Assembly (NCBI GenBank): GCA_000827325.1
Contig: KN832876.1
Span: 434,001-498,000 of the forward strand
Origin: Oidiodendron maius Zn
Lineage: Eukaryota; Ascomycota; Leotiomycetes; Myxotrichaceae
Length of the DNA: 64,000 nt
Reading direction: 5' to 3'
Under the pieces are notes generated by a model, which worked only from the letters and a program-made list of their open reading frames with translations, had not been told where the DNA came from and ran no database searches. Positions within the stretch are counted from its first letter, which is position 1. Every line of letters starts with the position of its first letter. The position numbers and the translations under genes are program-made. Below are positions 21,841 through 24,800 of the stretch, one piece after another.

Positions 21841-24800
21841 ATGCTCTCGTCCCGCCAATTCCTCCGTGCTCTCCCCAACCGGGCAATCGCCCAGATGGGC
21901 GTGCGACGGATGGCCACCGTCGGCGACGCTCCGCTCGACCGACAAGTGAGGCAGAACAACCACGAGAAGAACAACTTCATCAATTACAAGAAGATGTCCG
22001 AGAACCTGGCCATTGTTCGCCAGCGCCTCAACCGACCCCTGACCTATGCTGAGAAGATCCTCTACTCCCACCTCGACGACCCGCACGGTCAGGACATCGA
22101 GCGTGGGGTCTCCTACCTCAAGCTCCGCCCTGATCGCGTGGCCTGCCAGGATGCCACTGCCCAGATGGCCATTCTGCAGTTCATGTCCGCGGGCATGCCC
22201 TCCGTGGCCAACCCCACCACTGTCCACTGCGACCACTTGATTGAGGCCCAGGTTGGCGGTGCTAAGGATCTTACACGTGCCATTGAGATCAACAAGGAGG
22301 TCTACGACTTCCTGTCTACCTCGTGCGCCAAGTACGACATTGGCTTCTGGAAGCCCGGTTCCGGTATCATCCACCAGATCCTCCTCGAGAACTATGCCTT
22401 CCCCGGTGGCTTGTTGATCGGTACCGACTCCCACACCCCCAATGCTGGCGGCCTTGGGATGTGTGCAGTAGGTGTTGGTATGCATTTCTGCTCCCGAAAC
22501 ATACATAAGTAGTGAACTAACTCCTGAGCAGGCGGAGCTGATGCCGTTGACGTTATGGCCAACCTTCCCTGGGAGTTGAAAGCACCAAAGTTCATTGGTG
22601 TCAAGCTCACTGGTCAAATGTCTGGATGGACTGCTCCAAAAGGTATGTGAAATTTTGGGTCAATTGGAAGCTGGGCTAATTCGCTGTAGATATCATCCTC
22701 AAGGTTGCTGGAATCTTGACTGTCAAAGGTGGCACAGGCGCCATTGTGGAATATATGTGGGTAATCTCCTCACCGATGTTCTGAAGATTTTGCTGACATC
22801 CTCTTCATAGGGGTGAGTATTTTCCGGTTAATTGTCTATTCAACTATTTTCATACACGATGGCCGTGGGGTCATTTCCCCGAGCTCTTGAGGAAGGAAGG
22901 GGAGTCCTACTTTCCTATTTCCCTCTCTTCCTCAAGAGAAGTACAAAATGGAGCCGCTTCCTTCTGTCTCTCTCGTTTTGCTCGTCCTTCACCGTCTCTT
23001 CGAAGTCCTTCAAGCATCAAAGTTACCCGCTGTGTTCCAAGTCAGACTTGTAGCACAAGTCCAAAGTACTTTTCGATTCGAGCAGACAGATTCATCTCAC
23101 AATTCTCCATATTTGCTTCTCGCTAACACATTTCGCTAACACATTTCATAACTCAGGACCCGGCACTGAGTCCATTTCTGCAACTGGCATGGGTACAATT
23201 TGCAACATGTAGTTTTGGAATCCTATTCTAATAATGCAGAGCCGAGGCTGACACTGTGACAGGGGAGCTGAGATAGGTGCTACGACATCGTTATTCCCGT
23301 TCAACGACCGCATGTACGATTACTTGGCGGCAACGAATCGCTCGGAGATTGGAGATTTCGCCCGCTCGTATGCCAAGGAGCTGAGGGAGGACGAGGGTGC
23401 CGAGTACGACCAGGTCATTGAGATCAACCTCTCTGAGCTCGAGCCACATATTAACGGCCCCTTCACTCCCGATCTTGCCACCCCCATCTCCAAGTTCAGC
23501 GAGGCTGTGAAGGCTAATAACTGGCCTGAGGAGCTCAAAGTCGGTCTGATTGGTTCTTGCACAAACTCTTCCTACGAGGATATGTCCCGTGCTGCTTCCA
23601 TTGCCCGTGATGCCCTCGACCATGGCATCAAGGCGAAGTCTCTCTTCACCGTCACGCCCGGCTCCGAGCAAATCCGCGCTACGATCGCCCGTGACGGCCA
23701 ACTGCAGACCCTCGAAGAGTTTGGCGGAATGGTCCTTGCTAACGCTTGCGGTAAGTAATTTTTTCTTTTCCTATTGCCCTACTGGTATGTTCCTGCAGTT
23801 TAGATGGCTGTCCGCCATTCGAACTCTCAGCTCTATTGGGGCATATTATCAATCCTACCTTTTGGCACCTTGGGGACTCGCTTCTTTGCGATAATTTGAA
23901 CTCTGGACCAAACCCCACCCCTGAATGGGGATCGGTGCATATTTAAGCCTGTCAATTGAGGCATATTATCATTCAACCCTGGGTCGTTTCGGACTCTGGA
24001 CGCTGCAATTTCATTCTTCACCGTCGCTGACACATTAGTAACCCTGACCATCACTAACATATCACAGGTGTAAGTTTTCTAGTGAAAGTCTCCATGGTAT
24101 GAGCTAATTTTGATCACCCTAGCCTTGCATTGGGCAGTGGTCACGTGACGACGTCCGGAAAGGAGAGGCGAACTCGATCATCTCATCCTATAATCGAAAT
24201 TTCACAGGACGCAACGATGCCAATCCAGCGACCCATGCCTTCGTCGCCTCCCCAGATCTCGTGGTGGCAATGACGATCGCAGGCTCCCTCCACTTCAACC
24301 CCTTGACCGATAAGCTCAAGGACAAGGACGGAAACGAGTTTCTCCTTGCCCCCCCAACCGGCGAGGGCCTTCCCGCGAAAGGATACGACTCTGGAGAGGA
24401 TACGTATCAAACCCCCCCTACTGACCGCTCAAGCGTCTCTGTTGCCGTCTCGCCAACGAGCGATCGTCTTCAGCTCCTCGAGCCCTTTCAGCCTTGGGAT
24501 GGAAAGGATAAGCTGAACATGCCTATCCTGATCAAGGCCCAAGGAAAGACCACCACTGACCACATATCTATGGCTGGACCATGGCTGAAGTACCGTGGAC
24601 ACTTGGACAATATCTCTAACAACATGCTGATCGGTGCCATCAACGCTGCCAACGGCGAGGCTAACAAGGTCAAGAACTTCACAACCGGTGCCTATGACGC
24701 TGTTCCGGCCACCGCCAGAGACTACAAGAGTAAGGGCATCCCTTGGGTTGTCATCGGCGACTGGAATTACGGAGAGGGCAGTTCCAGAGAACACGCAGCT

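What the first reader, a model, noticed from the sequence alone, without database searches (positions are those of the whole stretch)
23751..24122. A second 2-nt exon (GT) in the same gene, inside the Fe-S cysteine motif
Cys452-Gly453-Pro-Cys455 is encoded as TGC G | GT | CCT TGC. The GT sits between CACAG and GTAAGT. Skipping it gives a stop within about ten codons and loses the last cluster ligand. The total coding length is 2352 nt (783 aa) only with both dinucleotides; 2348 nt without them is out of frame. Here the long intron comes first and the short second, the mirror order of the other pair. Two independent 2-nt exons in one essential gene is striking.
Basis: partly seen in the sequence, partly recalled or inferred. 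Interest (0 to 1): 0.82.

Follow-up and report, generated by a model that had tools for sequence, protein, structure and literature searches.

The report
Two-letter exon in fungal aconitase gene
A gene, apparently fungal, for the energy-metabolism enzyme aconitase appears to need an exon only two letters long, in the part that holds the enzyme's iron-sulphur cluster; it looks like a real and unusual case of a known oddity, ultra-short exons, and ordinary RNA reads alone could not prove it.

Summary
Window 21841-25115 (+) encodes a mitochondrial aconitase (783 aa; CDS 2352 nt). The model has seven GT-AG introns, and two of eight exons are 2 nt: GG (22811-22812) and GT (24068-24069). GT supplies the last two letters of Gly453 in Cys452-Gly-Pro-Cys455. 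Of the GT/GC-AG paths with one or two introns in the ranges listed, it is the only one with homologue length and motif. All 80 bacterial homologues kept (of 595) read ACGPCIGQ there. YAGNNGTRAGT occurs twice in 64 kb, both strands, at exactly these two exons; the count is ordinary (46 of 100 shuffles have two or more), the places are not. Skipping GT gives a stop after eight more codons.

Most likely two ordinary introns are removed one after the other. One correction: GT is also the start of the upstream intron, so the mRNA equals that of one AA-AG excision. Junction reads cannot decide; a splicing intermediate or lariat is needed. No RNA or fungal orthologue DNA was available. Closest published case seen: the 1-nt exon of Fusarium CYP621A. 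A new member of a known kind.

The parts
21841..25115 (+). mitochondrial aconitase gene, start codon to stop; 8 exons, 7 introns, 783 aa
   Evidence: Gene model; the two PDB mitochondrial aconitase alignments shown cover residues 36-779 with one single-residue gap; Pfam PF00330 and PF00694
23263..23750 (+). exon 6, ends ...GCT TGC G (Cys452 and first letter of Gly453)
23751..24067 (+). intron 6, 317 nt, donor GTAAGT, branch-like ACTAAC at 24053 with its A 10 nt before the end of the acceptor AG, acceptor CACAG
24068..24069 (+). 2-nt exon 7 (GT), second and third letters of Gly453 between Cys452 and Cys455
24070..24122 (+). intron 7, 53 nt, donor GTAAGT, branch-like GCTAAT at 24103, acceptor CCTAG
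24123..25115 (+). exon 8, starts CCT TGC (Pro454 Cys455), to stop
22757..22810 (+). intron 3, 54 nt, weak donor GTGGGT, branch-like GCTGAC at 22792, acceptor CATAG
22811..22812 (+). the other 2-nt exon (exon 4, GG): last letter of Met272 and first of Gly273 in EYMGPG
22813..23156 (+). intron 4, 344 nt, donor GTGAGT, branch-like GCTAAC at 23122 and 23135, acceptor CTCAG

Best explanation
The GT at 24068-24069 is a constitutive 2-nt exon of an apparently fungal mitochondrial aconitase gene. Two ordinary GT-AG introns, 317 and 53 nt, lie 2 nt apart. Shown from sequence: the two donors are the best and the joint second best in the interval, branch-like motifs lie just upstream of each acceptor, and of the GT/GC-AG paths listed only inclusion of GT rebuilds Cys-Gly-Pro-Cys at homologue length. 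Inferred: the introns are recognised by intron definition and removed one after the other, because the acceptor of intron 6 and the donor of intron 7 overlap and cannot be occupied at once. Either order gives the same message. Joining the first donor to the last acceptor directly makes a frameshifted dead-end transcript. Origin is open: gain of a long intron 2 nt from an older short one, or recruitment of a cryptic 2-nt exon inside one long intron after an exon lost 2 nt.
For: Gene model with 7 GT-AG introns and no other defect. The two PDB alignments shown are near-gapless with LANACGPCIGQW intact. Enumeration of GT/GC-AG paths in set ranges: 40 in frame and stop-free, 2 of homologue length, 1 with the motif; for the other pair 77, 3 and 1. 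Donor 23751 matches CAG|GTAAGTAT (recalled consensus) at 8 of 11, the best in 23741-24125; 24070 at 7, tied with 23785 and 23755. NCTRAY motifs: three before 24067 and one before 24122; in the other pair one before 22810 and two before 23156, none elsewhere in the two intervals. Strict motif twice in 64 kb, both here; shuffles.
Against: No RNA, no peptide and no fungal orthologue DNA could be consulted. The mature mRNA would be identical to that of a single AA-AG excision. The loose pattern AG-GN-GT alone arises in 12.6% of shuffles, and two YAGNNGTRAGT in a window is an ordinary count (46 of 100 shuffles). The intron 7 donor has T at -1 and beats the frame-losing donor at 24068 by only 7 to 6 matches. 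The first of the three branch-like motifs before 24067 is followed first by another AG, ending at 24038. CGPCIGQW was one of the six patterns used to fetch the homologues, which favours motif-bearing records. For the other pair: its donor GTGGGT is weak (6 of 11, below 23041 with 7), Met at position 272 was seen in none of the 80 homologues (77 Phe, 2 Ile, 1 Leu), and one AT-AC excision also keeps the length.
Confidence: 0.86

Rival explanations
1. One non-canonical intron, AA-AG, 23753-24122, is removed in a single step, and the GTs at 23751 and 24070 are not used as donors.
For: Of the 13 single excisions of the right length, two keep Ala-Cys-Gly-Pro: this one (GGT codon) and TA-TA 23752-24121 (GGG codon). 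This one gives exactly the same message as the 2-nt exon.
Against: It needs an AA donor two bases inside a perfect GTAAGT. It leaves the branch motif plus CACAG plus GTAAGT in the middle unexplained. The other pair would need a second, different excision; its same-message form is TG-CA, and of the six that keep EY-x-GP only one, AT-AC 22755-23152, has ends of a recognised class, with a start ATGTGGGTA that does not resemble the U12 consensus (consensus recalled).
Confidence: 0.05
2. Sequence error or collapsed short repeat at the exon 6 border: the real genome has one canonical intron and the inner AG-GT-GT is accidental.
For: The border is GT-rich, and loss of a dinucleotide there would produce the need for a 2-nt exon. 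No reads were available to check.
Against: An error would be needed at both pairs, and each would have to be matched by chance by an acceptor, the right dinucleotide and a strong donor.
Confidence: 0.04
3. [quoted passage not shown]
For: It occurs in fungi, is removed in two consecutive steps, and yields long composite introns (PMC7138796, PMC12403724).
Against: A nested pair leaves a single-gap product. The two single-gap products that keep Ala-Cys-Gly-Pro begin AA or TA, not GT. An external donor at 24068 (GTGTAA) would lose the frame. This is inspection, not a separate search for nested pairs.
Confidence: 0.03
4. Another in-frame route inserts or removes residues here in this species.
For: 38 of the 40 in-frame stop-free paths differ in length.
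Against: Each would change the length of a stretch that is identical in the 80 bacterial homologues kept and in the two PDB alignments shown. The one single-intron path, GC-AG, deletes Cys452 (LANPCIG).
Confidence: 0.02

Closest known systems
1-nt exon of CYP621A P450 genes in Fusarium (Nelson and Syed 2026, PMC12940212; parts 1 and 2 of 3 read)
   Same: Fungal gene (this window is inferred to be fungal); ultra-short exon inside a Gly codon of a conserved motif; flanked by AG and GT; needed for frame; argued from an intronless homologue.
   Different: 1 nt versus 2 nt; P450 versus central-metabolism enzyme; one versus two such exons per gene; that case has RNA reads and 20 orthologues, this one has neither.
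1-nt exons of Arabidopsis APC11 (PMC4674806, passages) and plant VPS55 (PMC8831610, passages)
   Same: Exon too short for exon definition; sequential removal of the flanking introns proposed for APC11.
   Different: Plant genes, 1 nt, experimentally verified.
Stwintrons sensu stricto and sensu lato (PMC7138796, section 6 part 1 and section 7 read; PMC12403724, passages)
   Same: Two U2-type introns within one composite stretch, consecutive canonical splicing by intron definition, risk of mis-splicing between the outermost sites.
   Different: Here the introns are side by side, not nested, and 2 nt of exon remain in the message.
Recursive splicing at zero-nucleotide exons (ratchet points; PMC8605326, listing and start of abstract only)
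   Same: Acceptor abutting a donor-like site (CACAG|GTGTAA).
   Different: The donor used must be offset by 2 nt; a zero-nt exon here would lose the frame.
Xlr2 microexon switch in Trichoderma virens (PMC11121469, abstract and passages)
   Same: Microexon in a fungal gene whose inclusion decides the product.
   Different: Longer microexon, shown to be regulated by glucose; no regulation is shown here.

Membership tests
Mitochondrial-type aconitase | Aconitase and Aconitase_C domains, near-gapless alignment to mitochondrial aconitase | tested here: met
   PF00330 479.7 bits, PF00694 153.5 bits; PDB 1c96 aligned 36-779, 1155.9 bits
Ultra-short constitutive exon | Flanked by AG and GT with consensus-like donor and branch motif | tested here: met
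   Sequence, donor ranking and branch motifs; use in splicing itself not tested
Ultra-short constitutive exon | Needed for frame and for a conserved motif | tested here: met
Ultra-short constitutive exon | Present in mature transcripts | not testable with these tools
   No RNA data held
Ultra-short constitutive exon | Conserved in orthologues | not testable with these tools
   The collections open to me are viral, bacterial, archaeal, phage and plasmid; the window's own genome is not held
Stwintron (sensu stricto) | Internal intron interrupts donor, branch or acceptor element of an external intron, no exon letters between | tested here: not met
   No single-gap product that keeps the motif has GT-AG ends; nested pairs were judged by inspection from that
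Introner-like element | Similar copies of the intron elsewhere | tested here: inconclusive
   Intron 4 versus intron 6 not above shuffles (94/500 and 206/500); in the window no match outside these introns below E 0.17 in the rows shown (listing cut at its weak end); rest of genome not available

The most novel reading that the evidence does not exclude
The two 2-nt exons act as a splicing control on aconitase, perhaps tied to iron or energy state: including both makes enzyme, while skipping either makes a frameshifted message for decay. Because such dinucleotide exons look like non-canonical junctions in RNA-seq, a class of them lies hidden in fungal annotations as 'AA-AG' or similar introns.
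Probability: 0.08. Interest if true: 0.82.

Novelty: new member of a known kind. Interest (0 to 1): 0.52.

Why it matters
If confirmed, it would be a 2-nt exon, twice in one gene, in a housekeeping enzyme; the main aconitase gene acoA of A. fumigatus could not be deleted (PMC3556520, passages). It would test the limits of intron definition, since acceptor and donor lie too close to be occupied together (inference). It also shows a blind spot of annotation: for this GT exon the mRNA is identical to that of a single non-canonical intron, so read mapping cannot by itself reveal it, and a gene predictor that misses it breaks the frame inside the Fe-S motif.

Tried and rejected
Introner-like origin: intron 4 versus intron 6 local alignment scored no better than shuffles (94/500 strict, 206/500 loose); six pairs of the 53-54-nt introns gave nothing notable (lowest 36/300). 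Outside these two introns no window match was below E 0.17 in the rows shown, the listing being cut at 4000 characters. The weak shared words (TTTCCTATT, TTCACCGTC, TCGCTRACACATT) are not taken as homology. Donor duplication as origin (the Lipomyces model): the intron 6 and 7 donor regions score 15, the intron 3 and 4 regions 14, within the 10-20 range of all 21 donor pairs. snoRNA or other known RNA in the long introns: no Rfam match in 21500-25500 up to E 5. Structure bringing splice sites together: none for pair 2 (z 0.00, 55 of 100 shuffles fold as well); pair 1 folds better than shuffles (z -3.31, 1 of 100), probably through a hairpin at about 22884-22938, so no shared mechanism. Relatives among viral contigs: 1 stretch matched a pattern, no relative. 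Papers: stwintron with aconitase, 0; phrases for 2-nt exons, 0, then 3 whose passages are unrelated. A paper holding aconitase, intron, microexon and Aspergillus was listed, not read. Broad searches returned more than I looked at: 735 papers with stwintron or microexon, 30 listed; 57 for smallest or single-nucleotide exon, 25 listed; one listed on aconitase genes and fungi, one looked at; 4, 4 and 2 listed. PMC9024468 was asked for small-exon words and had none.

Full report
What was checked. The stretch 23751-24122 lies inside a gene on the + strand, 21841-25115, whose eight-exon model gives a 783-residue protein. The protein is a mitochondrial aconitase: of 16 PDB sequences matched, the two shown as alignments are mitochondrial aconitases that cover residues 36-779 with one single-residue gap, and both Pfam aconitase domains are found. 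Introns are 54, 47, 54, 344, 54, 317 and 53 nt, all GT-AG. Exon 4 is GG (22811-22812) and exon 7 is GT (24068-24069). The script's CDS of 2353 nt included one base past the stop (I gave 25116 as its end); to 25115 it is 2352 nt. That the window is fungal is inferred from its genes (FKS1-type glucan synthase, GH72, Inp1); no call names the organism.

Is the dinucleotide needed? Skipping GT gives ...[12 protein letters not shown] and a stop (460 aa); keeping intron 6, intron 7 or both stops at 454, 463 and 454 aa. I listed paths with GT or GC donors and AG acceptors, one intron or two introns with an inner exon up to 60 nt and introns of at least 30 nt, with outer sites in ranges near the exon borders. 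For this pair, 40 paths were in frame and free of stops, 2 had the length of homologues, and 1 had ACGPC; that one is the 2-nt exon with donors GTAAGT and GTAAGT. The other length-matching path uses a GC donor and destroys the Cys. For the other pair the numbers are 77, 3 and 1. The only in-frame single-intron path here deletes Cys452 and gives LANPCIG.

Is the motif fixed? Bacterial homologues without introns serve as length markers. All 80 read ACGPCIGQ; 4 of 80 have a gap somewhere in the 25-residue surrounding, none in the core. At the other site 80 of 80 read EY-x-G with no gap in 26 residues, but x is Phe in 77, Ile in 2 and Leu in 1, never Met; the PDB chains shown have His. One of the six patterns used to fetch the homologues was CGPCIGQW, which favours such records. 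That Cys452 and Cys455 are cluster ligands is recalled from pig aconitase (Cys421, Cys424), not from a call.

Chance. In 2000 dinucleotide shuffles of the 372-nt interval, AG-GN-GT occurred in 12.6%, YAG-GN-GTRAG[T/A] in 0.05% and the form with GTR[A/T]GT in none. For the other pair (AG-NG-GT and its stricter forms, same order) the values were 22.4%, 0.15% and 0.05%. YAGNNGTRAGT has 2 matches in the whole window on both strands. That count is ordinary: 1.59 expected, 46 of 100 shuffles have at least 2. But both are these exons on the coding strand; by arithmetic about 0.01 would be expected inside the two intervals. In 23741-24125 the donor at 23751 matches the recalled U1 consensus best (8 of 11); 24070 has 7, as have 23785 and 23755. 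Branch-like NCTRAY motifs in the interval start at 24026, 24043, 24053 and 24103; the first is followed first by a cryptic acceptor ATTAG (24038), the next two by the inner acceptor, the last by the final one. In the other pair they start at 22792, 23122 and 23135, one before the inner and two before the final acceptor.

The exon letters GT are also the first two letters of intron 6. Of the 13 single excisions of the right length, two keep Ala-Cys-Gly-Pro: AA-AG 23753-24122, with exactly the same message, and TA-TA 23752-24121, with a GGG codon. For the other pair six single excisions keep EY-x-GP; none is GT-AG; one is AT-AC (22755-23152, EYSGP) and one, TG-CA, gives the same message as the GG exon. 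So junction reads or peptides would exclude skipping and other routes, but for the same-message forms they cannot tell a 2-nt exon from one non-canonical intron. Canonical signals make the 2-nt exon far likelier; intermediates or lariats would show it.

How it works. Splicing in Ascomycota pairs sites across introns (intron definition, stated in PMC12403724, passages). The acceptor CACAG and the donor GTAAGT are 2 nt apart, so a U1 particle on the donor and the acceptor-recognising factors would overlap (inference). Stepwise removal is then expected, as proposed for the Arabidopsis 1-nt exon (PMC4674806, passages). The three letters before the intron 7 donor are GGT both before and after intron 6 is removed, so its context is unchanged and either order should work (from the sequence). 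A competing donor GTGTAA at 24068 would make a zero-nt exon and lose the frame; it scores only slightly lower (6 against 7 of 11). A nested stwintron leaves a single-gap product, and those that keep the motif do not start with GT.

Origin. The five other introns are 47-54 nt; the two long ones each sit beside a 2-nt exon, in opposite order. Intron gain close to an older intron, or the cryptic-exon rescue proposed by Nelson and Syed (PMC12940212, parts 1 and 2 of 3 read), both fit. The long introns are not similar to each other (94/500 and 206/500 shuffles reach the score), and outside them no window match was below E 0.17 in the rows shown (listing cut). No sign of donor duplication beyond consensus was found. 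Without fungal orthologues this stays open; the window's genome is not held.

What is known. Nelson and Syed report a 1-nt exon in Fusarium CYP621A, call it the first for a fungal gene, and cite 2-5 nt exons in Arabidopsis, Drosophila and humans and small exons of 2-10 codons in fungi. Two 3-nt exons are mentioned for lipS of Dactylellina (PMC5639578, passages). APC11 and VPS55 have 1-nt exons in plants (PMC4674806, PMC8831610, passages). A regulated microexon is described in Trichoderma Xlr2 (PMC11121469, abstract and passages). My phrase searches for 2-nt exons found none described in this open library; it leaves out most subscription journals, and the broader listings were read only in part. 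AcoA of A. fumigatus is 787 aa, was cloned from cDNA, and could not be deleted (PMC3556520, passages); its exon structure is not given in the passages seen.

Verdict. Observation confirmed; interpretation supported on sequence grounds, with no RNA evidence. New member of a known kind, made more notable by two such exons in one gene.

Noticed in passing
15852-15972 (-): U5 spliceosomal RNA gene (Rfam RF00020, 69.6 bits), about 6 kb from the aconitase gene; the only Rfam match at gathering threshold in the window.
   Followed up: no
22884-22938: 18-bp inverted repeat (89% complementary arms, 19 nt between) inside the 344-nt intron 4; the pair 1 region folds better than shuffles (z -3.31), pair 2 does not. 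Possibly a small palindromic insertion.
   Followed up: partly
23120-23145: Tandem repeat of TCGCTAACACATT giving two branch-point-like motifs before the intron 4 acceptor; a 92% copy lies in intron 6 at 24024.
   Followed up: partly
23832-23854 and 23952-23974: 87% identical 23-nt direct repeat inside intron 6, 120 nt apart.
   Followed up: no
2746-7881 (-): Large open frame for a 1,3-beta-glucan synthase (FKS1 type, PF02364).
   Followed up: no
10183-11682 (+), 13239-14471 (+), 18031-19233 (-), 50188-51633 (+), 55261-56481 (+), 61866-63824 (+): Other gene pieces among the nine open frames scanned besides aconitase: GH72 glucanosyltransferase with X8, SprT-like plus possible HMG box, CRAL/TRIO, bromodomain with BAH, CUE, Inp1; together they suggest a fungal genome.
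   Followed up: no
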